From the NCBI RefSeq assembly GCF_000740895.1, contig NC_025260.1, positions 1-64,000 on the forward strand: a DNA stretch of 64,000 nucleotides, written 5' to 3'. Shown piece after piece: positions 1 through 37,800 of this stretch (positions are counted from its first letter, which is position 1; the number at the start of each line of letters is the position of its first letter). The notes beneath the pieces are model-generated. The model searched no databases. It saw only the letters and a program-made list of their open reading frames with translations, and was not told the origin of the DNA. Both the position numbers and the translations under genes were made by a program. The stretch is from Theileria orientalis strain Shintoku. Its lineage: Eukaryota; Apicomplexa; Aconoidasida; Piroplasmida; Theileriidae.

Positions 1-178
1 TAAACCCTAAAACCCTAAAACACTAAAAACTAAAACCCTAAACCCTAAAACCCTAAAACCCTAAAAACCCTAAAACCCTAAAAACCCTAAACCTAAAACC
101 CTAAACCCTAAAACCCTAAACCCTAAACCCTAAACCCTAAACCCTAAACCCTAAACCCTAAAACCCTAAACCCTAAAC
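1..178. repeat. Telomere repeat array (CCCTAAA / CCCTAAAA)
   Basis: The first 178 bases are an uninterrupted run of CCCTAAA and CCCTAAAA units with a few degenerate copies (for example CACTAAAAA near the start). The C-rich strand reads 5' to 3' away from base 1, as expected for the left end of a chromosome. The mixed 7/8-mer pattern is usual for piroplasm telomeres. The array ends at CTTGCCCTAGAGG, where unique subtelomeric sequence begins. Confidence 0.98.
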
Positions 179-13628: not shown

Positions 13629-16600
13629 TTAAAATTTTTTCACGTTTTGCTCTATAATTGATGAAATAGAGTCACTAGCAGCTACGTCGCTGGCCTTACA
13701 AGTTTTTACTACACACCCATCATGTATCACCCATACAGAGGTACAAGATTTTAATACGTTGACATCGTGTGCTGTGACAAACGTTGTACAATGACTAAAA
13801 TGTTTCTGCAAGAGATCATAAATTGGAACTGCAAGGTCATCATGGCTGGAACTGGGGGCATCCTGATCTTCCTCAGGGGGCTCATCGACTACAATAAGCC
13901 TAAAGAAGTGCCTGTATAACACAAGTCTGGCCAATGAAAGAGTTCTGAGTTGGGTATTGGACAGTAACATGTCACTTTCAAAGCCTACTTTGGTGAAATC
14001 CATTGACATTGACCTTTCCTTTTCAAATGCCCTTGCTCTTGTACTTTTAGGCATAAAATTTAAGCCAACATTGTCAGCCAATATAACAGTATCGAGACCC
14101 TTGGAGCCGGGCAGAGAGTTCACGAATTCTAGTAAGCCACACTTATTAAGAGCATGGTTAACCTCGTCGTCAGTAAACAATCTTCTGGGATCAAGGAACC
14201 TGCGAATATTCCATCCTCTAAAAACAAATGGAAGCTGAGGTAGAACGCCAACTATTTGCCTTAGTACAACCTTGGGGATTACATTCACGTCCTTACCATC
14301 TAACAGTACTTGGCCAGTTCGATTTGATATTATGTTCTGTAACACTGACAACAGGGTTGTCTTACCAGCACCTGTTCTGCCAACCATACCAATAATCTCA
14401 GATTTATGGGCTGACAGGGTAAGGTGCTTCAATATCATGCCTTTGTTATTGTGGATTGAAGAAGTGTAAACACAGACATCCCTCAACTCAACGCCTGAGT
14501 GATCTGGAGTCAGATATCGACCAATGTCCAAAATAGTCACCTTGGGATTGAAGAACAGCTTTCTCAGCCAAAGACTTTTTTTGTTATCGGCTCTGAACTC
14601 AGCTATTCTTCTCCTCATCAATTGAGCCTTATTAATGATAACACTTCCTCTATTTGTAGGGTTTAGAAGATTTTCTTCATGAGCATTAACAAATTTGCCG
14701 AACCTAAGTCTTTGACCCGGGGGAATGAAGTATCTGAACCTCAGAACGGAGCACATAGTCATGTCAAAGAGGCCTGTGTTAAGTGTCAATTTGATGAACG
14801 TCTTGTTAACATTCATACACAACGATAAAGCAAGAGCGAAGTATCCAACCTTCATCTTATACTTTGTATACTTATCCAAAACTATTGGTATGACGAGTAC
14901 CATAAGGGTGGTCAAAGAAAATGTCCAGTTGAACACCGTACTGGCCCATGATATAATTGCGTAGATCATGAAGTTGTATCGTCCTCTGTAGTCTCTGTGT
15001 TCAGTAAAACCGTTTAAGAGGTCGCCGTATCTTTCGAAACTCCTGTAAACTGATGATCCTGCTATTGCCTTTTCATATACAGAGGTAACTTGGGAAAAGG
15101 TTTCCATATGTGAAAGATATAGCCCCCTATTCGACCGTACATATTTTAACATGACAAAGTAGAAGATAAATACTAATGCCACAAATACAAATGGTATCGA
15201 AATTGGAATTAAGTAGAATAATGTAACTATGTTAGTTAAAAACTGGAGGAACAAAAACAATACTATTCCCAAGAAGAAGGCTACAGAATCGTCAATGAGA
15301 ATCATATCTGCAGCTAGATACGTTATGACTTGACTAATATTTTTCTTTATTTTTAGAACTGCTGAACTACAGTTGAAGATTGAATTAATGGTGTACTCAT
15401 GTAGTTTACGAGATGATACAACTGAGGCTGTGGTCATTATCAATGTTGCTAGGAATGATAGAATAATTATCAGTGACACGAACATTGTGGTAACTTTAAG
15501 TGATAGGTTAGCTCTTGATTTAACTAAATCCAAATCAATTGCTTCTCCATCCTTGAACTGTTTAATTTGTCTTCCTATGAAGTCTGTTGTTCTTGTTGCA
15601 AAGACGAACTTCAGAGTATCCATAATATTAACTGATGTGTTAAAAATTATATAGAGAGTGAAAGCTCCGGCTGCTGGGAGCATATAGGTTAAATATGAGT
15701 TAAATCTAACACCTGTAAGCTCATTTTTGACGTAAGATTTGAATGATCTCGTATATTTTTCTCTGGTTAATTCGCAATTGCACATTTTATCCTTGGTACC
15801 AGATGAGCAGAGATTAACCATGTCTTTGGTCAAGGAGTTCATGTAATAAGGTGTGTTGTTATTAGATGATAGGTACTTAAAATCAGCACTATTTACCTTC
15901 CTGTTTTTGGCGAAGTCTTGAAGACTTGAATAAAATTTCAACGATTCATTTTTAAGATTATAAACAGAACAATCGGGCAATTGGCCTACATCTGATGATT
16001 TCAAACACAATTCAAGAGACTGCTTCGACGATGTTAAAACGACACTTAAATCATTCTTTACCAATAGGCCTGTTTTAAGGTTAAACAGGTTATTGAATAC
16101 ATTTTTGGACACATATGGATCTAGGCCATGAAACGAGGCATCCAAACACATCAAGAATGAACACTTGCTGTTATTATACTCCTTGTTTACTTGATGGAAT
16201 ATCAAATAAGCGTACACTGCACGAGCCAACTCCATTCTTACACGTTGACCTCCACTCAGTGAAGGGGCATTATCTGACACTACTCTGAGGTCACCTTTAT
16301 CCCATGTTGAAATATCGAATTCAAGCTCCACTGCTTTAAGGACTGTGTTGTAAATGTGTTCGTCGAAGCGATAGCCAAATGTGATATTTGACCTGATAGT
16401 ACCCTGTTGCAGGAATATGTCTTGTGATGCATAGAATATTGGCATAGAAGTGTGTAGAGGCACTACTGCCATAGAGCCCCCAACCAGGGTCATCTCACCA
16501 AGCATTGACTTTATGAAGTTAGATTTGCCAGCACCTTGAGAACCTGTAACAATAGCCATCTCGCCACGTTTCAACTCGAAGTTTAAATTTTTTAAGAAAG

Positions 16601-18194
16601 TGTCGTATTTTTTATTTAATAGGTCATTGCGTGTGTGGACCCAAGTGAAATTAGCGTCCTTGTAGTAGACGACAACTTCATTGGGAAGTTGATTGGTAAC
16701 TTGATCAACGTTTGAATTCATATTGGAGGCTGGAACAAATTTGTTATCGCTGATGTAAAAATTAGGGGCACATTCTCTCACGTATTCCTCAAATCTCTTA
16801 AATGAAACAAATGCCACACCACACACCTTGATAGCTCTAGGCACCATAAACATGGATATAGCGATTCTAAGGAAAATATAGAATGCTGCCATGAAACCCG
16901 CTGCGTTAATGTCCGTAACAACACTCACACCGCGCACGGACTTGACGAATGCGTATTGTATTATATAAAATGACACATTTATACAGGTGCTGAACATCGT
17001 CAAGTTCAGGAAGGTCAAGAAGATGTTAATAACAATCATTGTGAGCTCGTTGTTTCTACACTGTGTGATTATGTTTACTGCAATATCGTCATTGAACATT
17101 TTCTTAATCAGAGACAAGTACGGGAACATGTAGTTACACTTTGACATCTTATAATCCCTCAAGTATAATACGAATTTAATTGTAATTGTACTCAATAACT
17201 CGACAAATATCATAAGAATTGTAAACACAATTCCAACTACATATAACACCCACATTTTCATTTTAATTTGACGAGCGAGTAAGAATATTCCGTAACTAAA
17301 GTTGGTGGCAAACTCAATGAATATTTTAATTGCGTTGAACGATTGGGAGAAATAAAAGGAATCCTTGGACTCAAAATAAAAAACTTTTGGGTTAATTTCC
17401 TTGTTCTGGTAACGTAGTGCTTGACAGTATAATGGATTCTTTGAACATTCCGAGTCAGGGGAACAACTATGTAGTACCTGATTACACACCCCAAGGGTAT
17501 TAGTGCCGTTGACGTTGTTTGAGAATTTTCTTCTGTAGCAGAGGGCATGGTGGAAAATACCGAACGATATTAAATACTGCACAATAGTAATCAACCGATA
17601 TGTATAGAAGCTTATATTTTCCAAAATCAGTCCATCTGCTATTTGACAGGCTATGATGGCTACCAATAAACCTACAGTTTGCTTTATGTTAATTGATTTA
17701 TCTCCCAGTTTAACAACCAATTTTTTAACCAAAATTGAAATGCTCATGCTTAAAACATTTACTAAAATCAAACCTATAATCACTACAAGTGCTCTCTTCC
17801 ATATGGTCAATAACAATGCTCTGAAAAGTAATGATCGGTATGGTCTTTTTGCTTTCTTTTTTCCGGGTACCGACTTTGAAGTTTCATATTCTTCCAGCCT
17901 TACTAGGCCGTCGCTAACGTGTTTCGAGAAAATCGGCTGCCATCTCAAAATCTGGTCCGATACCGGCAATGGATGTAACTTATATGGTTGTACGTGGTCG
18001 TAAGTAACATTGTTAACCCATTTTGTCAGCCAGTGAAAAAAGAAATATTTTATAAAACAGGCCGTGTCATAGTATAGGTATTTTTTGTGCTTCCTGTCCT
18101 TAAAATACGACTTCGTATACAAGTCACTTTGCCAAAACCATTCTTCCGGTCCCTCCTCAAGATTTAAATCCTTGGTCATCAAGCGTTTGTTCAT
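13629..18194 (-). CDS. Full-length ABC transporter, ABCC/MRP-like, subtelomeric copy 1 (1,521 aa)
   Basis: A single-exon full transporter with two membrane domains and two nucleotide-binding domains (NBDs). Hydrophobic segments begin near residue 120 (ALLLTIWKRALVVIIGLILV). NBD1 has Walker A GSQGAGKS near residue 550, Q-loop YASQD, and signature LSGGQR near 646. Its Walker B is CLDAS, so the catalytic Glu position is Ala, and the H-loop reads LTSSKQ with no His. NBD2 has Walker A GRTGAGKTT near 1273, a degenerate signature LSNTQLR near 1411, an intact Walker B VVDEPPEE, and an H-loop His in VTAHDVN. One of the two composite ATP sites should therefore be catalytically dead and the other intact, the asymmetry known in ABCC proteins. 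Substrate and membrane are unknown. Subtelomeric ABC families are known in Theileria. It is transcribed away from the Tpr/Tar-like gene. Confidence 0.92.
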   Translation of the reverse strand: MNKRLMTKDLNLEEGPEEWFWQSDLYTKSYFKDRKHKKYLYYDTACFIKYFFFHWLTKWVNNVTYDHVQPYKLHPLPVSDQILRWQPIFSKHVSDGLVRLEEYETSKSVPGKKKAKRPYRSLLFRALLLTIWKRALVVIIGLILVNVLSMSISILVKKLVVKLGDKSINIKQTVGLLVAIIACQIADGLILENISFYTYRLITIVQYLISFGIFHHALCYRRKFSNNVNGTNTLGVCNQVLHSCSPDSECSKNPLYCQALRYQNKEINPKVFYFESKDSFYFSQSFNAIKIFIEFATNFSYGIFLLARQIKMKMWVLYVVGIVFTILMIFVELLSTITIKFVLYLRDYKMSKCNYMFPYLSLIKKMFNDDIAVNIITQCRNNELTMIVINIFLTFLNLTMFSTCINVSFYIIQYAFVKSVRGVSVVTDINAAGFMAAFYIFLRIAISMFMVPRAIKVCGVAFVSFKRFEEYVRECAPNFYISDNKFVPASNMNSNVDQVTNQLPNEVVVYYKDANFTWVHTRNDLLNKKYDTFLKNLNFELKRGEMAIVTGSQGAGKSNFIKSMLGEMTLVGGSMAVVPLHTSMPIFYASQDIFLQQGTIRSNITFGYRFDEHIYNTVLKAVELEFDISTWDKGDLRVVSDNAPSLSGGQRVRMELARAVYAYLIFHQVNKEYNNSKCSFLMCLDASFHGLDPYVSKNVFNNLFNLKTGLLVKNDLSVVLTSSKQSLELCLKSSDVGQLPDCSVYNLKNESLKFYSSLQDFAKNRKVNSADFKYLSSNNNTPYYMNSLTKDMVNLCSSGTKDKMCNCELTREKYTRSFKSYVKNELTGVRFNSYLTYMLPAAGAFTLYIIFNTSVNIMDTLKFVFATRTTDFIGRQIKQFKDGEAIDLDLVKSRANLSLKVTTMFVSLIIILSFLATLIMTTASVVSSRKLHEYTINSIFNCSSAVLKIKKNISQVITYLAADMILIDDSVAFFLGIVLFLFLQFLTNIVTLFYLIPISIPFVFVALVFIFYFVMLKYVRSNRGLYLSHMETFSQVTSVYEKAIAGSSVYRSFERYGDLLNGFTEHRDYRGRYNFMIYAIISWASTVFNWTFSLTTLMVLVIPIVLDKYTKYKMKVGYFALALSLCMNVNKTFIKLTLNTGLFDMTMCSVLRFRYFIPPGQRLRFGKFVNAHEENLLNPTNRGSVIINKAQLMRRRIAEFRADNKKSLWLRKLFFNPKVTILDIGRYLTPDHSGVELRDVCVYTSSIHNNKGMILKHLTLSAHKSEIIGMVGRTGAGKTTLLSVLQNIISNRTGQVLLDGKDVNVIPKVVLRQIVGVLPQLPFVFRGWNIRRFLDPRRLFTDDEVNHALNKCGLLEFVNSLPGSKGLDTVILADNVGLNFMPKSTRARAFEKERSMSMDFTKVGFESDMLLSNTQLRTLSLARLVLYRHFFRLIVVDEPPEEDQDAPSSSHDDLAVPIYDLLQKHFSHCTTFVTAHDVNVLKSCTSVWVIHDGCVVKTCKASDVAASDSISSIIEQNVKKF

Positions 18195-21856: not shown

Positions 21857-24800
21857 TTAATCACGCTTAACATTTTCTTCAATAATCGATGCGATAGACT
21901 CATTTGCGGATACTTCACTGGCTTTACACGTTTTTACTACACACCCCTCATGTATCACCCACACAGAGGTACAAGATTTTAATACGTTGACATCATGTGC
22001 TGTGACGAACGTGGTGCAATGACTAAAGTTTTTCTGTAGAATATCATAAATTGGAACTGAAAGATCATCCTTTCTGACGTCGGCTTTTTCGGGATCTTCC
22101 TCAGGGGGCTCATCAACTACTATAAGCCTAAAGAAGTGCCTGTATAACACAAGTCTGGCCAATGAAAGAGTTCTGAGTTGGGTATTGGACAGTAACATAT
22201 CGCTTTGATCTCCATCTTTAGTCAATTTCATTGACTTGTATTTGAATGAGCTGGGTTGAGCTTCTTTTGATTTCTGATGATATAAAAGAGGATCCTCGGG
22301 TACCAAAATACTATTCAATTTCCTTCCTCCAGAAAGCTCGTTAACAAAATTAAGCAGACCACATTTACTCAAAGCCTGGTTGATTTCGTCGTCAGTAAAC
22401 ATCTTCCTGGGATCTAGTAACTTACGAATAGTCCAACCCTTGAATACGTATGGCAGTTGTGGTAGAACACCTATGATTTGTCTGAGAACAACCTTGGGGA
22501 TATCATTCAGGTCCTTGCCATCCAACAGTACTTGGCCAGTTCTATTTGATATTAAATTCTGTAAAACGGATAATAATGTTGTCTTACCAGCACCTGTTCT
22601 TCCAACTATACCTATGATCTCAGATTTACCAGCTGACACAGTGAAGTGTTTTAGAATCATGCCTTCTGGGTTAAGGTCGGGTGTTGTGTACACACACACG
22701 TCTTTCAGCTGGACACCTGTGCGATCATGGGTTAGGTAATCGTTGACATCGAGGATATGTAATTTAGGATGGTAGAATAGTCTTCTCAAAGCATAAAACC
22801 TTTTGTTTTCAACTTTAAATTCTATGGCCCTTCTCCTTAACAATTGTTTTTTATCCATCTCACTAACATGTTTATTCGCAGGATTAACTACATATTCTTC
22901 ATGGGTGTTGGGACACTTGTCGAACTTGAGCTTTTGACCCGGAGGAATGAAGTACTGGAACCTATCAATTGAACTGATATTCATTTGATTACAAGCATAC
23001 ATAAACGAAAAGTTGCTAAATGACTTGATCACATTCGTACAAAGCGATAGCGCTAAACCATAATAACCAACCATCATATTGTACTTGGTGTATTTGTCCA
23101 GAATGATTGGGATTACCAGTATAATGAATGTGGTTAATGAGAATATCCATGTAAACAAGATTGTTGACCACGAGACGGCAGCAGCAATAAGGAACTTGCC
23201 TCTGGCTAGATAATCCCTATGTTCCAAAAAATCTCGTAACTGATTTGAATTTCTATTGAAGGTTCTGTACACAGATCCTCCTGAAATAGAACTTTCTATT
23301 ACACAGTTCATTTGAGATTGGGCCTCCAATATCCCAATATGTAAGTTTACAGCGTTACCTATAAACCTCCTCAAAATATAAATATATATTATAACCAAAG
23401 TGAGAAGAATGAAAGGAACGGATATGGGAATTACATAGAACAAAGTAATTAAGTTGGTGACAGTCTGAATTGATGAAAATAAGAATAAAGCAATAAATAA
23501 CCCTGTAATATCATCCGTAATCATAATATCACAAGACAGAAAAGTTATCATGTGATTGATCTGTTTCTTAATTTTGACTAAGGATGACCTATAGTTGAAA
23601 ATTGCGTGGAGAGCATATTCGTGAAGTTTCCGACATGAAATCAAAGAAGCCGCGGAAATGGCTAAAGTGGCCAACAAGGACAATGCGATAATTACTGATA
23701 CAAATATTACTGTCACTTTTAGTGCCGAATTACTGCGGGATTTAATCTCAGCAAGGTCCACTATGGTCCCCTTGTTGTGATCGTTGATGTTTTTGGTGAT
23801 GTAGTCTGATAAGTTCGTCGACAATACTAGTTTAACGTAATCCATGGCATTTAAAGCGACAGTTAGTATTATATATAAAGCAAATGAGACTGCAGCGGGC
23901 TTCATGAACATAAAATACGGCTTGAACCAAACTTTTCCGAAGAGATTTTTGTTGTATTTTACGAATGAATCCCGATATAGTTGTTTGATTAACTGGGCAC
24001 GACTCGACCTGGAATTGTCGGAAAAACAAAAACCAAGCATGTCGTTGTTTAGGCGATTAAGGGTGTAATAGCCAGCTTTAGAATATGTCGAATAGTTGAA
24101 GTCGCCCTCGTGCCTCTTGTTCCTGATGAAGTTTCCTAGATAGGATAAGAAGGCCAGCTCCTTGTTCTTGACGTTAAAAATTGGCACTTTCGGGAATTGG
24201 GCTGGATCACATGACTTGGTGCACGTATCCAGTATCTGTTTCGACGATGTTAAAACGACACTTAAATCGTTCTTTACCAATAGCCCTGATTTAACGTTAA
24301 ACAGGTTATTGAATATAGTTTTGGATACGTATGGATCTAGGCCATGGAACGATGCATCCAGACACATCAAAAACGAACACTTGCTGTTATTATACTCCTT
24401 GTTTACTTGATGGAATATCAAATAAGCGTACACTGCACGAGCCAACTCCATTCTTACACGTTGACCTCCACTGAGTGAAGGGGCATTATCTGACACTACT
24501 CTGAGGTCACCCTTCTCCCATGTTGATATGTCAAATTCAAGTTCAACAGCCTTCAACACAGTCTTGTACAAATGCTCGTCAAACTTATGACCAAATACAA
24601 TGTTGGATCTAATAGTACCCTGTTGCAGGAATATGTCTTGTGATGCATAAAATATTGGCATTGATGTGTGTACAGGTATAACTGCCATTGAGCCACCCAC
24701 TAGGGTCATCTCACCAAGCATTGATTTGATAAAATTTGATTTACCTGATCCTTTGGAACCGGTGACAATGGCAATTTCGCCGCGTTTCAACTCGAAGTTT

Positions 24801-26371
24801 AAATTTTTTAAGAAAGTGTCGTATTTTTTATTTAATAGGTCATTACGTGTGTGGACCCATGTGAATGAAGCGTCTCTGAAGTACACAACAGTGTCATTGG
24901 GCAGTTGATCAGTTGTATCAGCGATAATTGAACTGACATTGGCTGAGCCAGTAAATTTATTATCAGCGACATAGAAATTAGGGGAACATCCAGAGAGATA
25001 CTTATTTAATCTTTTATACGAAGCATAAGCCATTCCGACAACGTTTATAGCCCTAGGAATTATAAACATCGAAGTGACTATTCTCATGTATATATAAAAC
25101 GTTGTCATAAATGCTGCAGTGTTAATATCAGTAACAACACCCGCATCATTAACTGTCTTAACAAAATAACATTTAATCAAGTAAAATGAGACGTTAATTG
25201 AGGTGCTGTACAAACACATGTTTATAAACGTGATGGCAATTTTAATGAAAATCAATGAAAGTTCGTCATTCCTTGTTTGAGTAATAATATTAAATCCAAT
25301 GTCGTCACAGAACATTTTTTTAATATTACTTAGTCTTCCAAGGATGTTATTGTACTTTGTTACTTTATAATCTCTCATGAATAAAAGGTATTTATAAATA
25401 ACTGCGTTAAAAATCTCAATGGAAACCATAAAAACTAGAAACAACGATCCGGTAACGTACAACACCCATAAGTTAGCCTTGAGGTGTCTCGACAGCAGGT
25501 AGACTCCATAAATAAAATTCGTTAGAAACTCGACAATAAATCTGGTCGACTCGAATGCCATGGCAATATAAAACGAGTCATAAAACACGTATGTGAAAAC
25601 CTTGGGACTCATTTCCTTGTCTTGATGACGCAGTGCTGGGCAGAATAATGGGTTTTTAGAGCACTGTGATTCAGGCGTAGTGCTGTGAAGTACCTGATTG
25701 CACGTGTTCAAAAGATTTGAACCATCGATGTTGTTGAAGTAGAGGCGCCTGTGACAAATTGAGTAGCGGAAGGGGACGATACCGTACAAGTAATGGAGTA
25801 TGTAAACCATCCTGTTAATATAAAAGTTAATATTCTCAAGTAGAAGCCCGTCCAATACTTGCAAGCCCTCAATAGCCAACAACAACAGTATCGTTTTGGC
25901 CAAGTGGATAGAAGGCTTGGTTAGAATTTGAAGCAATTTTTTGACCAAACTGGATATGCTCATGCTCAAAATGCTCCCTATCACAAGGGCAAAAAACAAC
26001 GCAAATGACCTTTTCCATGACGTCAACAGTATTGCGCGGAGCAAAACGGATCGGTATGGTCTAACAGGCTTCTTACTGGACTTAGTGGTCTCGTAAAGAT
26101 CCAATCTTACTAACCCGTCACTGACATGTTTAGAAAATATTGGTTCCCATTTTAAAATCTGATCTGAAACTTGTATTGGGTGTACCTTATAAGGTTCCAT
26201 ATACTTCCTAGAGAGAGCCAAGGCCCATTTGTTGAACCAGCTATAAAACAGATACCTGAAAATTGTTGCATCATCGTAATAGCTAAATCCATTGTCTTTT
26301 ATTTTTTTAATATCGGATTTGTTATACACATGGCTCTCCCAAAACACGGGACTCGGGTCCTCGTCGGCCAT
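21857..26371 (-). CDS. Full-length ABC transporter, ABCC/MRP-like, subtelomeric copy 2 (1,504 aa)
   Basis: Same architecture as copy 1: an N-terminal region with a conserved lead-in (PYKVHPIQVSDQILKWEPIF), a first membrane domain, NBD1, a second membrane domain, then NBD2. NBD1 carries Walker A GSKGSGKS, signature LSGGQRVRMEL, Walker B with Ala after the Asp (CLDAS), and LTSSKQ in place of an H-loop His. NBD2 carries GRTGAGKTT, the degenerate signature LSNTQLR, VVDEPPEE and a His in VTAHDVN. The linker and the second membrane domain diverge strongly from copies 1 and 3, whereas NBD1 blocks are identical at DNA level to one copy or the other. The start ATG at 26371 gives MADEDPSPVFWES, parallel to DDPDPLIWES in copy 3, which supports the choice. 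It converges on the Tpr/Tar-like locus and diverges from copy 3. Confidence 0.92.
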   Translation of the reverse strand: MADEDPSPVFWESHVYNKSDIKKIKDNGFSYYDDATIFRYLFYSWFNKWALALSRKYMEPYKVHPIQVSDQILKWEPIFSKHVSDGLVRLDLYETTKSSKKPVRPYRSVLLRAILLTSWKRSFALFFALVIGSILSMSISSLVKKLLQILTKPSIHLAKTILLLLAIEGLQVLDGLLLENINFYINRMVYILHYLYGIVPFRYSICHRRLYFNNIDGSNLLNTCNQVLHSTTPESQCSKNPLFCPALRHQDKEMSPKVFTYVFYDSFYIAMAFESTRFIVEFLTNFIYGVYLLSRHLKANLWVLYVTGSLFLVFMVSIEIFNAVIYKYLLFMRDYKVTKYNNILGRLSNIKKMFCDDIGFNIITQTRNDELSLIFIKIAITFINMCLYSTSINVSFYLIKCYFVKTVNDAGVVTDINTAAFMTTFYIYMRIVTSMFIIPRAINVVGMAYASYKRLNKYLSGCSPNFYVADNKFTGSANVSSIIADTTDQLPNDTVVYFRDASFTWVHTRNDLLNKKYDTFLKNLNFELKRGEIAIVTGSKGSGKSNFIKSMLGEMTLVGGSMAVIPVHTSMPIFYASQDIFLQQGTIRSNIVFGHKFDEHLYKTVLKAVELEFDISTWEKGDLRVVSDNAPSLSGGQRVRMELARAVYAYLIFHQVNKEYNNSKCSFLMCLDASFHGLDPYVSKTIFNNLFNVKSGLLVKNDLSVVLTSSKQILDTCTKSCDPAQFPKVPIFNVKNKELAFLSYLGNFIRNKRHEGDFNYSTYSKAGYYTLNRLNNDMLGFCFSDNSRSSRAQLIKQLYRDSFVKYNKNLFGKVWFKPYFMFMKPAAVSFALYIILTVALNAMDYVKLVLSTNLSDYITKNINDHNKGTIVDLAEIKSRSNSALKVTVIFVSVIIALSLLATLAISAASLISCRKLHEYALHAIFNYRSSLVKIKKQINHMITFLSCDIMITDDITGLFIALFLFSSIQTVTNLITLFYVIPISVPFILLTLVIIYIYILRRFIGNAVNLHIGILEAQSQMNCVIESSISGGSVYRTFNRNSNQLRDFLEHRDYLARGKFLIAAAVSWSTILFTWIFSLTTFIILVIPIILDKYTKYNMMVGYYGLALSLCTNVIKSFSNFSFMYACNQMNISSIDRFQYFIPPGQKLKFDKCPNTHEEYVVNPANKHVSEMDKKQLLRRRAIEFKVENKRFYALRRLFYHPKLHILDVNDYLTHDRTGVQLKDVCVYTTPDLNPEGMILKHFTVSAGKSEIIGIVGRTGAGKTTLLSVLQNLISNRTGQVLLDGKDLNDIPKVVLRQIIGVLPQLPYVFKGWTIRKLLDPRKMFTDDEINQALSKCGLLNFVNELSGGRKLNSILVPEDPLLYHQKSKEAQPSSFKYKSMKLTKDGDQSDMLLSNTQLRTLSLARLVLYRHFFRLIVVDEPPEEDPEKADVRKDDLSVPIYDILQKNFSHCTTFVTAHDVNVLKSCTSVWVIHEGCVVKTCKASEVSANESIASIIEENVKRD

Positions 26372-29843: not shown

Positions 29844-32800
29844 ATGAATAAGTCTTCCAGAACTATATCGCAAACGTTAGTAGATGACCCTGACCCTTTG
29901 ATTTGGGAGAGTAAGGTTTATTCGAAAACGTACTTCAGTAGAATAAAGAATAGTAATTTTAAATACTATGATAACTCAAGTATTTTTAAGTATTTATTCT
30001 TTCACTGGCTTAACAAATGGGTTTGTTTGCTTTCAAAGCAATACACTGAGCCATACAAGTATCATCCTCTACCAATTTCAGACCAGGTTCTGAAATGGCA
30101 ACCAATATTTTCCAAACACGTTAGTGATGGAATAGTTAGGTTGGAATCATATGATGAATCGAAATTTAAATCGAGAGGCAGTGTTAAGAAACCTTATAAC
30201 TCAATACTCTTAAGGGCCTTATTTCTAACTATTTGGAAAAGAGCCCTAATGCTTATTACAGGATTGATAGTAGTAAATGTTTTGAGTATGAGCATTTCAA
30301 TTTTGGTTAAAAAGTTACTTGAAATATTGGACGATAAATCTATAAGTTTTGTAAAGATTTTTTTCTTGTTGTTGTCTATAATTCTATGTCAGATTGCGGA
30401 TGCTTTATTCATTGAAAATATAAATTTTTACCTTTTGAGACTGATTTGTGTTGTTAACTACTTGTATATGATTGGAGTTTTTCAACATGGTATGTGTCAT
30501 AGAAGGAAATTTTCGAATGGCATAAATGGCTCTAATTCATTGAATGTGTGCAACCAGGTTCTTCACAGTTGCTTACCGGGTTCCGAATGCTCCAAAAATC
30601 CGCTTTATTGCCAAGCATTGAGGCATCAATGTAAAGATATCAACGGCCAGATCTTTAACTTCGTGTATAACGATTCGTTTTATGTCTCACAGTCAATTGA
30701 GGCCGTTAAATATATTGTTGATTTTTTTGTAGATTTCGGATATGGAGTTTATTTGCTTTCATTACAGGTTAAGCTTAATATATGGGTGTTATATTTCTTG
30801 GGCATCTTATTTGTATTCATTATGGTTGTTTTCGAAATACTGAATGCCATTACAATAAAGTTCGTTCTTTATCTGAGAGATTATAGATTAACGAAGAGCA
30901 ATGATTTTGTAACTTCACTGCCACTTATCAAAAAAATGTTTTATGATGATATCGCAATCAATATTATTACTAAAAGTAGAAATAACGAACTATCAGTTCT
31001 TTTCGTCAACATGTTCCTTACGTATTTTAACATGACATTGTACAATATGTGTATAATAACAACTTTCTACGTTGTTCAAAGATATTTTGTGACTTCTGTT
31101 ATAGAAGCTTCGGTTATTACTGATATTGATACAGCAGGATTTATGACATCATTTTATATTTTCCTAAGAATCGCAATATCAATGTTTTTATTACCAAGAT
31201 GTATCAGATCTATCGCAAAATCTTATGTGTCATTTAGAAGGATGGGAATATACATAAAGGATTGTCCTCCTAATTTCTATATAAGTGATAATAAATTTAC
31301 TGGCTCAGCCAATGTCAGTTCAATTATCGCTGATACAACTGATCAACTGCCCAATGACACTGTTGTGTACTTCAGAGACGCTTCATTCACATGGGTCCAC
31401 ACACGTAATGACCTATTAAATAAAAAATACGACACTTTCTTAAAAAATTTAAACTTCGAGTTGAAACGCGGCGAAATTGCCATTGTCACCGGTTCCAAAG
31501 GATCAGGTAAATCAAATTTTATCAAATCAATGCTTGGTGAGATGACCCTAGTTGGGGGCTCTATGGCAGTTATACCTCTACACACATCAATGCCAATATT
31601 TTATGCATCACAAGACATATTTCTACAACAGGGTACTATCAGGTCAAATATCACATTTGGCTATCGCTTCGACGAACACATTTACAACACAGTCCTTAAA
31701 GCAGTGGAGCTTGAATTCGATATTTCAACATGGGATAAAGGTGACCTTAGAGTAGTCTCCGACAGAGCTCATTCTTTAAGTGGAGGTCAACGTGTAAGAA
31801 TGGAATTGGCTCGTGCAGTATATGCTTACTTGGTATTCCATCAAGTTAACACTGAGTACAACAACAGCCAATGTTCATTCTTGATGTGTCTGGACGCCTC
31901 GTTCCACGGTCTAGATCCATACGTTTCCAAAACTATATTCAATAACCTGTTTAACCTTAAAACAGGGCTATTGGTAAAGAATGATTTAAGTGTTGTTTTA
32001 ACAACATCAAAACAAACTCTTGATATATGTTCAAAAACGTCTGATATAAACCAGGTTCCGAATCCTCCTGTATATAACATTAATAACCAGATGTTGAATT
32101 TTTATTCAAATCTTCACGACTTTATCAAGAATAATAGAATAAGCAACGTAGACTACAATTTCATATCAAATAACATTGGCGGTTTCAACATTCACTTTCT
32201 TTCTAATGATATGTTAAGTATGTGTTCATATGGAGTAAAAAACAAAAAAGTACGTATGGAAATAACTAAAGAAAAATATGATGAATCATATAAATCATAT
32301 ACCAAGGATGAATTTCCAGGTGTCAAATTTAATTCTTATATGATTTACTTGGCTCCTTGTTTAGGTTTTTTCGTGATTTATCTATTGATTAACATCATAG
32401 TTTCTGTCATGGATAATATAAAATATGTATTGTCGACTAGATTGTCTGATTACATATCTAAGCACATTAGAGACTTTAAGAATGGCCAATACTTTGATTT
32501 AGCTGAAATTAAAGCCCATAGTTCTTTCTGGTTAAGAATTATGACATTATTTGTTTCAGTTATTATTGTTCTAACCATTTTGTCCACAATATTGTTTTCA
32601 ATTTTGTCAAATATAACTTGTCGTAAAATTCACGAATACGTCGTCGATTCAATTTTTAAAAACAGTTCATCTGTAATAAAGGTAAAGAAAAAAGCTAATC
32701 AGGTCATGACATATTTATCCTGTGATACCACTATGACTGACGACGATGTTGGATATATATTATTGTTATTTTTAAGTTGCTCCATACAGGCAATCACCAG

Positions 32801-34412
32801 CATTGTTACATTGTTCTATTTGATTCCTATTTCTATCCCTTTCTTCATTGTGACATTGACTATTTTGTACAAATTCATACTACTGAACTTAATCAATTCT
32901 GCCAAGAACAAACAGGTTGCAATGTTAGAATCTATGTCTCAGGTCAATTCTGTATGTGAAAATGCCATTTCCGGATCTTCAATCTATAGAAGCTATAAAA
33001 ATGAACTTGCGCTGGTTATAGATTTAATCGAAAACACTGATTACTATATTAGAAGTCGTTTATTGTATAGACTAATCTTAACTTGGTGCACGCTGATATT
33101 TAAATACATTTTTTCTTGTGCAACATTTTTTGTTTTCATTCTTCCAATCATGTTGGACAAATTCACCAAATACAAATTAAAAGTTGGTTATTTTGGACTA
33201 GCTCTATCCTTGTGTATGAATTTAGCCGAAGCTTTTGGCAAATTCAGTAAAACATACGCCAAAATTGAAATATATACATGTTCGCTTAAGAGGTTCACAC
33301 ATTTTATACCACCCGGTCAAAAACTTAAGTTTGGCAAATTCGTTAATTCACACGAAGAATACATAATCAAACCTGCCAACAACGGAGTAAACAGAGTTAA
33401 TAAACTTCAATTGCTAAGGAGAAGGGCCATTGAATTTAAGGCTGAAAACACGAAATTCTACGGGTTAAAGAGAATTTTCTACCACCCCAAAATACACATC
33501 ATGGATGTAGAAAATTACATAACTCCCGACCATACAGGTGTCGAGTTGAAAAACGCTTGCGTATATACTCGTCCAGATTTTGATCCTGAGTCTATGATAT
33601 TGAAGCATCTCACAGTGGCAGCCACTAAATCTGAAATCATCGGTATAGTTGGAAGAACAGGTGCCGGTAAGACAACTTTACTTTCTGTGTTGCAGAACTT
33701 ATCGACTAATCGTACAGGTCAAGTACTATTGGACGGTAAAGATTTGAATGATATCCCCAAGGTTGTCCTTCGTCAAATTATTGGTGTGTTGCCACAACTA
33801 CCATTTGTGTTCAAGGGTTGGACTATTAGGAGATTTTTAGATCCTAGAAGATTGTTCACTGACGACGAGATCAATCAGGCTTTGAATAAATGTGCCCTGT
33901 TAAACTTTGTTAATGAGCTTCCTGGAGGTTTGAAGTTAGATACTCTCATTGTTCCAGACGACTTGTGGATAAACCCCAATAAACCCAAGAATAGTAATGT
34001 AAACATTAAAGAACTTGAAAAAAAATGTTCAACGTCCACCGATCTCATCAAAGCGTCCTTTGAAACCGATATGATAATTTCTAACAGTCAATTGAGAACT
34101 CTTACTCTTGCAAGATTAGTGTTATACAAAGACTTCTATAGAGTAATTATTGTAGATGAGCCACCAGAAGAAGACCTGTTTGATGCATCTATTAGAGAAG
34201 ATGATCTTGGTGTTCCAATTTATGATCTATTACAAAAACATTTTAGTCATTGTACCACGTTTGTTACAGCACATGATGTAAACGTATTGAAAACATGTAC
34301 CTCGGTATGGGTAATACATGAGGGTTGCCTAGTGAGGACGTGTAAGACAAGTGATATCGCAGCAAATGAGTCTATCGCATCAATTATTGAAGAAAATGTT
34401 AAGAGTGGTTAA
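29844..34412 (+). CDS. Full-length ABC transporter, ABCC/MRP-like, subtelomeric copy 3 (1,522 aa)
   Basis: Single-exon paralogue of copies 1 and 2 on the opposite strand. NBD1 (residues about 480-720) has Walker A GSKGSGKS, signature LSGGQRVRMEL and CLDAS, with no H-loop His (LTTSKQ). NBD2 has GRTGAGKTT, signature-position SNSQLRTL, IIVDEPPEE and VTAHDVN. The first 480 residues resemble copy 1 more than copy 2. The NBD1 start (FTGSANVSSIIADTTDQLPN) is identical to copy 2, then IRSNITFGYRFDEHIYNTVL is identical to copy 1. This mosaic points to gene conversion. It lies 400 bases upstream of FAINT copy B on the same strand. Transport substrate is not predictable from sequence. Confidence 0.92.
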   Translation: MNKSSRTISQTLVDDPDPLIWESKVYSKTYFSRIKNSNFKYYDNSSIFKYLFFHWLNKWVCLLSKQYTEPYKYHPLPISDQVLKWQPIFSKHVSDGIVRLESYDESKFKSRGSVKKPYNSILLRALFLTIWKRALMLITGLIVVNVLSMSISILVKKLLEILDDKSISFVKIFFLLLSIILCQIADALFIENINFYLLRLICVVNYLYMIGVFQHGMCHRRKFSNGINGSNSLNVCNQVLHSCLPGSECSKNPLYCQALRHQCKDINGQIFNFVYNDSFYVSQSIEAVKYIVDFFVDFGYGVYLLSLQVKLNIWVLYFLGILFVFIMVVFEILNAITIKFVLYLRDYRLTKSNDFVTSLPLIKKMFYDDIAINIITKSRNNELSVLFVNMFLTYFNMTLYNMCIITTFYVVQRYFVTSVIEASVITDIDTAGFMTSFYIFLRIAISMFLLPRCIRSIAKSYVSFRRMGIYIKDCPPNFYISDNKFTGSANVSSIIADTTDQLPNDTVVYFRDASFTWVHTRNDLLNKKYDTFLKNLNFELKRGEIAIVTGSKGSGKSNFIKSMLGEMTLVGGSMAVIPLHTSMPIFYASQDIFLQQGTIRSNITFGYRFDEHIYNTVLKAVELEFDISTWDKGDLRVVSDRAHSLSGGQRVRMELARAVYAYLVFHQVNTEYNNSQCSFLMCLDASFHGLDPYVSKTIFNNLFNLKTGLLVKNDLSVVLTTSKQTLDICSKTSDINQVPNPPVYNINNQMLNFYSNLHDFIKNNRISNVDYNFISNNIGGFNIHFLSNDMLSMCSYGVKNKKVRMEITKEKYDESYKSYTKDEFPGVKFNSYMIYLAPCLGFFVIYLLINIIVSVMDNIKYVLSTRLSDYISKHIRDFKNGQYFDLAEIKAHSSFWLRIMTLFVSVIIVLTILSTILFSILSNITCRKIHEYVVDSIFKNSSSVIKVKKKANQVMTYLSCDTTMTDDDVGYILLLFLSCSIQAITSIVTLFYLIPISIPFFIVTLTILYKFILLNLINSAKNKQVAMLESMSQVNSVCENAISGSSIYRSYKNELALVIDLIENTDYYIRSRLLYRLILTWCTLIFKYIFSCATFFVFILPIMLDKFTKYKLKVGYFGLALSLCMNLAEAFGKFSKTYAKIEIYTCSLKRFTHFIPPGQKLKFGKFVNSHEEYIIKPANNGVNRVNKLQLLRRRAIEFKAENTKFYGLKRIFYHPKIHIMDVENYITPDHTGVELKNACVYTRPDFDPESMILKHLTVAATKSEIIGIVGRTGAGKTTLLSVLQNLSTNRTGQVLLDGKDLNDIPKVVLRQIIGVLPQLPFVFKGWTIRRFLDPRRLFTDDEINQALNKCALLNFVNELPGGLKLDTLIVPDDLWINPNKPKNSNVNIKELEKKCSTSTDLIKASFETDMIISNSQLRTLTLARLVLYKDFYRVIIVDEPPEEDLFDASIREDDLGVPIYDLLQKHFSHCTTFVTAHDVNVLKTCTSVWVIHEGCLVRTCKTSDIAANESIASIIEENVKSG

Positions 34413-34816
34413 TCACAACATATCACTCCACCAGAACTATACAATTGTCCACAAAATGTAGTTTAATGCTATTCAAACACTTTTGTTAACTCACTGTAAT
34501 ATATTTATTAAATTTGTTCATTATATGTTACATTTTTTATATATTGTTATACTATTATTAGTTTATTCAAAAATTATATATATAAACTTATTTGTAAAAC
34601 ATTTTAATACTAAATCTTATTTAATTGTTCTGTCGTCGGGTATATATACAGCATACTTAACGTAAAATAAATTTGCCATAAAATTTCATATCGCTATTGT
34701 TTTTAATATATAATTAAACTACATGATCGTATTATTGATGGAATTTTACTTCTCTATCCCGATGTATTGCTATAATTATTGTCATCGCATTACAATGTAA
34801 ATCGCATATTTTTACA
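34413..34816. other. Short intergenic region between ABC copy 3 and FAINT copy B
   Basis: About 400 bases of very AT-rich DNA with homopolymer runs. It holds the ABC 3' end and the FAINT promoter. Nothing else is identifiable. Confidence 0.6.
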
Positions 34817-37800
34817 ATGCTTATTGTTTACACATTTTTCTTATATTTCATTATATATTTTTTCATTAACAATATTTTTTGTTTTGAGTTAGACATCGGG
34901 AAAATTGTAAATTATTCTATTGGATCTGTTTCAGTCAATATACAAAAGACAAAGAAATTTGATAATTTGTACACACATATTTTCGATAAACCCATTCTTT
35001 TAAAGAACATTAGAAATGGATATAGAAAATTGTATTTTGATAAGTTGTTGATTAGTGATCAACTATTATTATCTTCATCGATATTATGGGTTAGAAAAAA
35101 ACCTCTTGTTATTCAGTTAAATTTCGAAAATTCTTCAGTTTTACTTTTAAATGAAAACAATTCATTATTATCGGCAGAGGCTGTATTTTCTGAGAAAATT
35201 ATCAGTAATATAACTTATAGAATTCATTCTGAAACCGAAGAGTTTGTTGACGTTGATCTTTCAAAATTTGAAGATTATGATTTTAACACATCTAAAGTTA
35301 ATGTTACTAAACTTGAATTTCATAATGATAAATTTAAACGGTACGCTCTTAGGAACTATAATTTGCAATCAACGAAACTGGGCAAGCTACTATATAATAC
35401 TGTCGAATTGAAAACATTAGTCAAAAATGGCCCTGAAAAAATTATTGAGGAAAATTTTATTATTCCTTTTAAAAATGACTTGTATTCAATACGAGTGTAT
35501 TCATATGATGATTTTCCTTTAATAATAGAGGCTCTATACACATTTAATAAGAGACTCTTTTTCGGTTATACTCCCGAAAAAAGGTGGCATCATCTTAAAT
35601 TTCCGCCCTTTCATCATCCTTCTTATATGGATTTTTTGTACGAAATTATTAGTTATTACGCCTGTAAAAATCGATTCAAATATACTATAGATGTATCTCA
35701 TATTTCCGAGACAAATGATGATACATATAAAATAAATAATTATTGTATCGGATCAGATGGAGTAGAAACAATTTCGAATTTTCTAAAGGTTCAATTTTAC
35801 ACTGATACTCAGTACAATGACGGTGTTTATAGGTGCTATGAACATATTCCATCTAATGATAGCACATTTTTTGTAGATCACTTAATGGATGTAGAGTCAT
35901 TTTTCCGCCTTCCTGACACACCGGACTTTACTAAATTAATCAGAGTTTATTATCGCATAGATTGGAGGCCATATTTGATCGTTTTTGTTGACAAGTCGAA
36001 TAAGTTACACTGCTACAAATACAAAGATAAAATTTGGGAAATTGACGAGACAGTACCGAAAGGTGATCATGAAAGATTTAATGGAGTAATAAGAAATCTT
36101 CTTGATGAGTAGGCCTTATATTTAAATTTAATCCATTACCATTTATTCTTTTTAGTTATGTATTCTTTTTTTTAATTAATTAAATTTTGTATCATTTACA
36201 TTGATTTTCAGACTTGTTATCTATGATAGTCGACTCTTATTTGGATCAATAATAGTTCTGACAGATTTAAAAACAGAGTATAACAAGAAGCATTTGGCTG
36301 TTGCATTGGGAAGTTCTTTATCATCAAAGTTTCTCGAACATAACTTTATTAGTGTAAGTGATCAGACAAGCACTAATGGATCATGTTTAAGCCCTAGTCA
36401 TTTTAAAATCTTTAAACACGATCTAAGTAGAACCACCGGAAATGTATTACACAATGGAAAATCTTCGACTCTGAGTTTAGGGTTATTCGTGGATAAAAAT
36501 AACATTAATCTGTATGATAATCTAAATTCAAGGGAGAAACCTATAAGCATAACTTACAAAACTTCCAGTAATGACCTGTATGTTTACTTTTATGGCGATT
36601 CGGATCCTAGACCTTTGCTCATATGTTACAATAATAAAGCATATAGACCTATTTCCAGTGATGCTTATTTTACTGAATGGGTTACAGTAGATTCAATTAA
36701 ACGCTGTGACTGTACTGATGATAATGGGAACAATAACCTCCTAGAAACCCTTCTAAATGTTAGCAATATAATCAACCCTGTGAACATAAAAAACACAACG
36801 GGCGACGGTTATGTTATACAAAATTTTAACAAACAGCCCATTAGAATCACTTTAGAATCGGCAAATTTATCATGTTTTAATAAACATGTACATAAGACTC
36901 AACAAAATTTTAGATTGGGAACTATTCTTCATGGTTTAAAGTGTATTAAAGAGATCAGTGGAGGCAATGACTCAACCTGTATAACGGCTACATCTAAAAA
37001 TAGTCCATATAACACCGCAAGTGAAGTAGTGGTTTACTACCATAAAAATGATACTGACCATAACACTCCTTTACTCGTAGCGCTTAAAAATGGAAATACA
37101 TATGAGCCAAATTACCTGTTTTCTAGTAGCACAAGCTCAGATAAGTATTATCAGAAAATGGATGGAGATATTGACCTGTCTGAGGCATCAATATCCCCGA
37201 AAATTGATGAAATATTATTTAGACAAGGAAAATTGCTCCAGGTTATTCTCGGCAACAGACAGGGAACTAGTATTTCTGATACTTATCAGGCCAAGCTTTA
37301 TGAAAACACAGGAAGTCTAACTGAGAGTGGTTTGACTATGCGAATAACATTATCTATGCCGACTGAAGTGGCTGGTGATTCTAAATACGATGGATTTAAA
37401 TACTATCAGCATCAACTGTCCTCCATTCCTGGTATAAAAAATATCGGTGGCTTAAAGCTTTACTTATGGGACGACGGTCAAAAAAATGTCAAGGAAATTA
37501 AGTTATACTCAGATGAAAGTGGTCAAACTCCCATGGAAAAGTTGTTCTACAATACTTGTAAGGGTAATATTTATGTATACTTTTACGGGGATAGGGATAT
37601 TAGGCCACTGCTAATATGCTACAACTACAAAGCTTACAGGCCTATGAGTAAGGCAAGCTATGATACCAAGTGGGTACAGGTGAATAGCATAGACAGATGT
37701 TCATCCGAGACCTCTGACAATACAAAGATGTTGAGGGAACTTGATAATGTTGTAAAGTTTTTGAATGTGATAAAAACTCACACGCAGGCTAACCGAGGAA

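What the first reader, a model, noticed from the sequence alone, without database searches (positions are those of the whole stretch)
31288..31746. ABC copy 3 is a DNA-level mosaic of copies 1 and 2 (gene conversion across opposite strands)
About 260 bases at 31288-31550 are identical, third codon positions included, to copy 2 (complement of about 24705-24964). The next block, about 31628-31746, is identical to copy 1 (complement of about 16290-16411) where copy 2 differs (ITFGYRFDEHIYNTV against IVFGHKFDEHLYKTV). Upstream and downstream membrane domains are widely diverged. Switching identity partners over a few hundred bases is a classic sign of recent gene conversion.
Basis: seen in the sequence. 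Interest (0 to 1): 0.75.

Follow-up and report, generated by a model that had tools for sequence, protein, structure and literature searches.

The report
Parasite transporter genes sharing ATPase segments
Neighbouring transporter genes at a chromosome end of the cattle parasite Theileria orientalis appear to have copied short DNA pieces from one another, mostly in the part that binds ATP, so this part stays alike within each parasite genome while the membrane parts drift apart.

Summary
ABC copy 3 (29844-34412, +) is identical to copy 2 over 267 nt (31286-31552) and to copy 1 over 122 nt (31626-31747), silent sites included, while membrane domains of the three copies are 44-59% identical in protein. 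Gene conversion is the best reading, with two corrections. First, copy 3 has its own lineage (sister on contig C4, orthologues in two other strains) and carries two short shared tracts in the first ATP-binding domain (NBD1); it is not simply a mosaic of copies 1 and 2, which share tracts themselves. Second, the pattern is family-wide: in 30 aligned copies, 10 of 12 non-sister pairs within 60 kb share an identical tract of 60 nt or more, against 39 of 386 others; 74 of 82 such tracts lie in NBDs. Across three genomes, the NBD1 tree sorts by genome (23 label changes; shuffles 28-42); the membrane-domain (41) and NBD2 (39) trees do not. Most likely: ongoing, homology-dependent ectopic gene conversion, giving NBD1-centred concerted evolution. 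This is a known kind of process; no report of it for this family was found in the searches made. Reads were not available.

The parts
13629..18194 (-). ABC copy 1 (c1), 1521 aa, TMD1-NBD1-TMD2-NBD2
   Evidence: ORF and translation; two PF00005 stretches and PF00664
21857..26371 (-). ABC copy 2 (c2), 1504 aa
   Evidence: ORF and translation; two PF00005 stretches, PF00664 not listed
29844..34412 (+). ABC copy 3 (c3), 1522 aa
   Evidence: ORF and translation; two PF00005 stretches and PF00664
31286..31552 (+). Tract A in c3: 267 nt identical to c2; about residues 481-570, from the TMD1-NBD1 linker through NBD1 Walker A (residue 550)
   Evidence: maximal exact match; motif position
24699..24965 (-). 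Tract A in c2 (favoured donor)
   Evidence: alignment with sister copies
31626..31747 (+). Tract B in c3: 122 nt identical to c1; about residues 595-635, just before the LSGGQ signature (residue 645)
16288..16409 (-). Tract B in c1 (direction undetermined)
31407..31468 (+). 62 nt identical in c1, c2 and c3, inside tract A (c1 complement 16567-16628; c2 complement 24783-24844)
16159..16256 (-). Tract C: 98 nt identical between c1 and c2 (24375-24472) in NBD1, from the signature towards Walker B; also identical in the copy at C1:2735514
13894..13970 (-). Tract D: 77 nt identical between c1 and c2 (22122-22198) in NBD2
1..177 (.). Telomeric CCCTAAA-type repeats at the contig start; the three genes lie 13-35 kb from it
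   Evidence: sequence

Best explanation
c1, c2 and c3 are three anciently diverged members of the large Theileria ABCC-type (MRP-like) transporter family, next to a telomere of chromosome 1 of Theileria orientalis Shintoku. Short tracts of NBD1 have been copied between them by ectopic, non-allelic gene conversion at the DNA level. Shown: the tracts, their statistical excess, their concentration in NBDs, the excess of sharing between neighbours, and the clustering of NBD1 by genome. Inferred: strand invasion starts where two paralogues are still alike (the NBDs, NBD1 above all) and gives non-crossover tracts of about 100-600 bp; each conversion raises local identity and so favours the next. The result is concerted evolution of NBD1 within a genome while the membrane domains, which set the substrate, diverge. 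For tract A the favoured direction is c2 to c3; for tract B it is unknown.
For: Exact tracts and run probabilities. Partner switching: among 29 other aligned paralogues c3's best partner is the copy at C4:59197 in 36 of 50 twenty-codon windows over the two membrane-domain regions, then c2 (1.00) over c3 31332-31511, then c1 (1.00 and 0.98) over 31632-31751. Of 398 non-sister pairs (membrane-domain identity below 0.6), 10 of 12 within 60 kb share a tract of 60 nt or more against 39 of 386 others (Fisher p 1.8e-8, and p at most 4.2e-6 in all 18 cut-off combinations; pairs share genes, so p is only a guide). 82 tracts by midpoint: NBD1 48, NBD2 26, TMD1 5, TMD2 3. Across genomes, 77 of 90 directed reciprocal-best orthologue comparisons have NBD1 nearer to an own-genome paralogue than to the orthologue, and in 73 of the 77 that paralogue is the more distant one by membrane domains. 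Control: 28 of 37 non-sister pairs with NBD1 identity of 0.92 or more are same-genome; label shuffles mean 12.3, maximum 24 in 5000. Genome-label changes on FastTree trees: NBD1 23 (shuffles 28-42), TMD 41, NBD2 39. Local trio: NBD1 0.90-0.94 within Shintoku and 0.92-0.93 within Fish Creek, but 0.84-0.88 between counterparts of the two; membrane domains 0.44-0.61 within, 0.77-0.92 between counterparts. Tract size fits conversion tracts measured in T. parva crosses (medians 108-426 bp, PMC3575351, passages).
Against: Tracts B and C are weaker within NBD1 alone (c1-c3 0.038 and c1-c2 0.10 after correction for 398 pairs), and none of the three window pairs exceeds the joint-shuffle maximum. The genome effect is in the tail: mean NBD1 identity of non-sister pairs is only 0.006-0.007 higher within than between genomes. 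Opposite-strand neighbours share tracts less often (3 of 5) than same-strand ones (7 of 7), with tiny numbers. Direction is not proved: c3's orthologues partly resemble tract A at its start. The Fish Creek counterpart used for c2 (MACJ_003314) is not its reciprocal best match. NBD2 shows tracts too, and its own-genome best matches exceed other-genome ones 102 to 51, so the restriction to NBD1 is a matter of degree; in T. annulata and T. parva NBD2 looks as homogenised as NBD1 (9 and 8 of 14 comparisons). No reads were available.
Confidence: 0.88

Rival explanations
1. Assembly chimera or collapsed repeat: the shared tracts were created by the assembler.
For: Subtelomeric repeated family; no reads could be examined here. 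One Robertson protein (P0089) looks patchwork against Shintoku copies, so draft assemblies of this family may hold chimeras.
Against: The tracts (267 and 122 nt) are flanked by diverged sequence on both sides, and the three copies keep differences from one another inside NBD1.
Confidence: 0.05
2. Constraint, not exchange: NBD1 is under strong protein or nucleotide-level selection (codon use, overlapping signal), so silent sites look alike.
For: NBD1 is among the most conserved parts (mean pairwise aa identity 0.84-0.89 in its core), and mean codon identity at aa-identical sites is higher in NBD1 (0.58) than in the membrane domains (0.44).
Against: Constraint predicts one conserved sequence; instead different silent haplotypes coexist and the partner switches within 75 nt. 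The run test conditions on NBD1's own level of matching. Constraint does not explain why NBD1 clusters by genome or by distance along the chromosome.
Confidence: 0.03
3. Recent duplication or unequal crossing-over with later loss (birth and death) rather than conversion.
For: Some family pairs look like recent duplicates, for example the copies at C1:1476484 and C1:1471137 with an identical run of 914 nt; c2 and the copy at C1:2735514 are sisters (TMD 0.87).
Against: c1, c2 and c3 are not sisters: membrane-domain identity 0.44-0.59, and their closest relatives lie elsewhere. The shared tracts are internal, bounded on both sides by diverged DNA.
Confidence: 0.04

Closest known systems
Theileria ABC transporter family (38 genes annotated in Shintoku, 55 Fish Creek, 43 Goon Nure; PMC9323827, passages; T. 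annulata members named subtelomeric ABC-transporter family)
   Same: c1-c3 are members: same length and domain order, c3 up to 84% identical to T. orientalis members of other strains
   Different: The passages seen treat copy number, dN/dS, SNPs or recombination between genotypes; none of them describes exchange of sequence between ABC paralogues
Concerted evolution of the Tpr family in Theileria parva (Bishop et al. 1997, seen only as a reference entry; later study PMC10730637, passages)
   Same: Theileria multigene family with a conserved part and diverged parts; gene conversion invoked
   Different: Tpr is a dense locus of unknown function with a conserved C-terminal domain; here dispersed ABC genes with a homogenised internal ATPase domain
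Meiotic conversion tracts in T. parva crosses (PMC3575351, passages)
   Same: Tract length (medians 108-426 bp)
   Different: Exchange between parental strains' alleles, not between paralogues
ABCC/MRP transporters (ABCC4 and others in the PDB)
   Same: Two TMDs and two NBDs; asymmetric NBDs
   Different: A large Theileria expansion with low identity to them; substrate unknown

Membership tests
Ectopic gene conversion tract | Bounded stretch of identity including silent sites, beyond chance | tested here: met
   the joint-shuffle maximum over all pairs was not exceeded by the window pairs
Ectopic gene conversion tract | Flanks on both sides follow a different genealogy from the tract | tested here: met
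   c3 partner switches: C4:59197 copy / c2 / c1 / others / C4:59197 copy
Ectopic gene conversion tract | Non-reciprocal transfer with identifiable donor | tested here: inconclusive
   c2 to c3 favoured for tract A; tract B undetermined
Ectopic gene conversion tract | Present in raw reads | not testable with these tools
   no reads held
Concerted evolution | Paralogues within a genome more alike than orthologues between genomes | tested here: met
   NBD1, at protein level: 77 of 90 comparisons, tree label test 0 of 500 shuffles at or below the observed value, control
Concerted evolution of the whole gene | Same for membrane domains and NBD2 | tested here: not met
   TMD 41 and NBD2 39 label changes, no fewer than shuffled; NBD2 29 of 90, although NBD2 own-genome best matches exceed other-genome ones 102 to 51
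ABCC (MRP-type) full transporter | TMD-NBD-TMD-NBD, closest solved relatives ABCC | tested here: met
   (c3; best hit MRP4/ABCC4, E 1.3e-49); PF00664 is not listed for c2
ABCC (MRP-type) full transporter | Asymmetric sites: NBD1 Walker B without catalytic Glu, NBD2 with non-canonical signature | tested here: met
   NBD1 LSGGQR in 29 of 30 copies; no Glu after the Walker B Asp in the 28 of 30 shown; NBD2 signature LSNTQ-like in the 25 of 30 shown, VDEPP in the 20 of 30 shown (most frequent forms only); that this defines ABCC is recalled
ABCC (MRP-type) full transporter | Transport of organic anions or drugs | not testable with these tools
   none

The most novel reading that the evidence does not exclude
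NBD1 behaves as an exchangeable cassette that each Theileria genome keeps uniform across transporters with very different membrane domains (for example NBD1 98-99% identical with membrane domains about 38% identical), and this is favoured by selection, for instance because all these pumps must fit one strain-specific partner or regulator, rather than being only a by-product of higher starting identity.
Probability: 0.15. Interest if true: 0.65.

Novelty: new member of a known kind. Interest (0 to 1): 0.5.

Why it matters
Orthology, drug-target and virulence comparisons of Theileria ABC genes that rest on the conserved NBD (PCR, phylogeny, Pfam PF00005 hits) may give wrong gene relationships, because NBD1 tends to follow the genome and the membrane domains follow the gene. 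It also offers a natural system in which conversion acts more on one of two homologous domains of the same gene, so the roles of homology, distance and selection can be separated.

Tried and rejected
(first family alignment) is invalid: minus-strand loci were not reverse-complemented; it was replaced and nothing from it is used. A joint column-shuffle test of the maximum run over all pairs was uninformative for the window pairs, because two other pairs with nearly identical NBD1 dominate the maximum; exact per-pair probabilities were used and both results are told. A search for an independent Ikeda-genotype copy of c3 in the Robertson draft with a 361-aa piece (best 120 of 2113 listed) listed two MACL proteins, 66% identical over 91% of the query and 89% over 24%, so c3's mosaic is not confirmed in a second isolate of the same genotype. 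Robertson protein P0048 differs from its Shintoku counterpart at 13 of 1253 aligned residues, 10 of them between residues 622 and 733, in and just after NBD1; this suggests recent change, but Robertson is a draft and 6 of those 10 residues match none of the three other Shintoku copies compared, so it is not used as proof. A recurrent tract start near alignment column 480 was considered; the pairs are not independent and it was dropped. cDNA-mediated conversion was considered: for another pair (C2:1522628 and C2:1516975) near-identity runs from 745 bp upstream of the matched start into the gene, which shows duplication or exchange of DNA there; for tracts A and B cDNA cannot be excluded by sequence, since these ORFs show no introns. 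Papers: none of the titles, abstract beginnings or passages seen treats exchange between ABC paralogues in Theileria (searches; passages). The Shintoku genome paper itself is not held and most subscription papers are absent, so absence from print is not shown. The bird ABCG2 paper listed for ABC plus gene conversion reports no clear conversion (PMC7362505, passages).

Rows dropped before counts: the family analysis used 30 of the 31 matches found (39 candidates at first look, 31 scored); the 31st (L031) was fetched but not aligned. The cross-strain tests used 30 Shintoku copies, 27 Fish Creek and 20 Goon Nure proteins: of 117 proteins in file 103 passed a 1300-1700 aa filter, themselves drawn from the best 120 of 627 hits, so short or unlisted members are missing; Robertson proteins were left out of these tests; the 90 comparisons are directed, limited to reciprocal-best pairs with membrane-domain identity above 0.70, and not independent. 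The T. annulata and T. parva test used 24 proteins.

Full report
What was checked. The window is the first 64 kb of a 2,746,313-bp contig (C1) in a 9.01-Mb, six-contig genome, and begins with CCCTAAA-type telomeric repeats. Database names and the contig length point to chromosome 1 of Theileria orientalis strain Shintoku, a tick-borne parasite of cattle. Three ORFs of 1521, 1504 and 1522 aa without apparent introns, c1 (13629-18194, -), c2 (21857-26371, -) and c3 (29844-34412, +), encode full ABC transporters; the best solved relatives of c3 are ABCC4 and other ABCC proteins. c2 and c3 are divergent, with 3.5 kb between their starts.

Maximal exact matches are 267 nt between c3 and c2 (31286-31552 against complement 24699-24965) and 122 nt between c3 and c1 (31626-31747 against complement 16288-16409); 62 nt (31407-31468) are identical in all three; c1 and c2 share 98 nt in NBD1 (16159-16256 / 24375-24472) and 77 nt in NBD2 (13894-13970 / 22122-22198). 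In 40-codon windows of the three-way codon alignment, c2-c3 third positions are 0.97 and 1.00 identical in the two tract-A windows, and c1-c3 0.93 in the tract-B window, where c2-c3 falls to 0.35; most other windows lie between 0.25 and 0.57. With the number of synonymous matches held fixed, the longest runs have probability 1.4e-11 (c2-c3) and 9.7e-5 (c1-c3) within NBD1 and 9e-23 and 1e-9 over the gene; c1-c2 is 2.6e-4 and 3e-7. Multiplied by 398 non-sister pairs, c2-c3 and c1-c3 stay below 0.05 in NBD1 (5e-9, 0.038) and c1-c2 does not (0.10). A joint shuffle test using the maximum over all pairs was not passed by the window pairs, since two other pairs are nearly identical over all of NBD1.

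What c3 is. Among the 29 other aligned family copies of the genome, the best partner of c3 is the copy at C4:59197 in 36 of 50 twenty-codon windows over the two membrane-domain regions. Around NBD1 the best partner changes from that copy (0.93) to c2 (0.93-1.00 over c3 31272-31511), to the C4:59197 copy and others in the short stretch between the tracts (where c2 is still at 0.95), to c1 (1.00 and 0.98 over 31632-31751), to others, and back to the C4:59197 copy at 31992. c3 also has reciprocal-best relatives by membrane domain in Fish Creek (MACJ_003316, 0.87) and Goon Nure (MACK_003157, 0.85). So c3 is an old lineage with short imports, not a mosaic of c1 and c2. The start of tract A is shared by c2 and by c2's sister copy at C1:2735514, with their upstream flank, but not by c3's sister copy: c2 to c3 is favoured, though c3's orthologues partly resemble the start of the tract. 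For tract B the sisters of c1 and of c3 both differ, so direction is open.

The pattern is family-wide. Of 435 pairs among 30 copies, 398 have membrane-domain identity below 0.6. Of these, 10 of 12 pairs within 60 kb share an identical tract of 60 nt or more, against 39 of 386 others, Fisher p 1.8e-8 and at most 4.2e-6 over 18 cut-off combinations; pairs share genes, so p is a guide only. The 82 tracts fall by midpoint in NBD1 (48), NBD2 (26), TMD1 (5) and TMD2 (3). Extreme cases are the neighbours at C4:1354139 and C4:1359232 (631 nt identical, NBD1 0.98, membrane domains 0.38-0.39) and C2:2197064 and C2:2191977 (551 nt, NBD1 0.99, 0.37-0.38). For the pair C2:1522628 and C2:1516975, near-identity runs from 745 bp upstream into the gene, which is duplication or exchange of DNA.

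The pattern repeats in other genomes. Prefixes MACJ, MACK and MACL stand for Fish Creek (Chitose), Goon Nure (Buffeli) and Robertson (Ikeda) (PMC5921998, passages). In 77 of 90 directed orthologue comparisons NBD1 is nearer to an own-genome paralogue than to the orthologue (over the 90: best own paralogue mean 0.935, its membrane domains 0.507; orthologue 0.888); for NBD2 29 of 90. Since a best-of-many paralogue has an advantage, controls were run: with equal numbers of non-sister candidates, the own-genome best match beats the other-genome best 120 to 34 for NBD1, 102 to 51 for NBD2, 76 to 78 for TMD1 and 75 to 79 for TMD2; of 37 non-sister pairs with NBD1 identity of at least 0.92, 28 are same-genome (shuffle mean 12.3, maximum 24 in 5000). 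The effect is in the tail: mean NBD1 identity of non-sister pairs is only 0.006-0.007 higher within than between genomes. Genome-label changes on FastTree trees: NBD1 23 (shuffles 28-42), TMD 41 (29-43), NBD2 39 (28-42). For the local trio, NBD1 is 0.90-0.94 within Shintoku and 0.92-0.93 within Fish Creek, 0.84-0.88 between counterparts, and 0.85-0.87 between non-counterparts of the two genomes, so little or no orthology signal is left in NBD1; membrane domains are 0.44-0.61 within and 0.77-0.92 between counterparts. The counterpart of c2 (MACJ_003314) is its best but not its reciprocal-best match: it matches the copy at C4:38531 as well. In T. annulata and T. parva, 9 of 14 reciprocal comparisons for NBD1 and 8 of 14 for NBD2 favour the own-species paralogue.

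How it most likely works. Shown: tracts, proximity effect, domain bias, clustering by genome. Inferred: ectopic strand invasion where paralogues are alike, short non-crossover repair, and feedback through raised identity. The lengths fit conversion tracts of T. parva crosses (medians 108 and 207 bp for non-crossovers, 277 and 426 bp with crossovers; PMC3575351, passages). NBD1 carries the canonical LSGGQ (29 of 30 copies) and, in the 28 of 30 shown, a Walker B without the catalytic Glu; NBD2 has a degenerate signature and the Glu in the forms shown, so NBD1 completes the one site expected to be catalytic (recalled rule for ABCC). Whether NBD1 is homogenised more than NBD2 because it starts more alike, or because selection favours it, is open.

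Known and new. Concerted evolution is on record in Theileria for Tpr (reference entry and passages), and paralogue conversion in general is well known (recalled); the ABC family and its strain differences in number are known (PMC9323827). No title, abstract beginning or passage seen in the listed searches describes exchange among these ABC genes or its concentration in NBD1. It is a new member of a known kind, with a clear and testable pattern. The main gap is read-level proof for c3 and DNA-level tests in the other strains, for which only proteins were at hand.

Noticed in passing
window 9361-10445 and complement of 34805-35890; also 7171-7899 and complement of 37494-38216: Another pair of related stretches flanks the ABC cluster in inverted orientation (68.6% and 62.9% nt identity), in ORFs without a Pfam match above its cut-off: a second repeated subtelomeric family.
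   Followed up: partly
L003/L030 (C4:1354139, C4:1359232) and L004/L029 (C2:2197064, C2:2191977): Neighbouring genes whose membrane domains are only 37-39% identical have NBD1 98-99% identical, the strongest cases of NBD1 sharing.
   Followed up: partly
P0048 (Robertson, MACL_00001015) against the copy at C2:1516975: Within one genotype, 10 of 13 differences over 1253 aligned residues fall between residues 622 and 733, in and just after NBD1; draft assembly, so uncertain.
   Followed up: partly
L006 (C1:1471137): One in-frame TAG near residue 115 of the matched stretch in an otherwise full-length family copy.
   Followed up: no
window 51685-53982 (-): Sortilin/Vps10 family gene, and G+C rising from 0.31-0.41 in the first 48 kb to 0.43-0.51 beyond it: probably the passage from subtelomere to chromosome core.
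   Followed up: no
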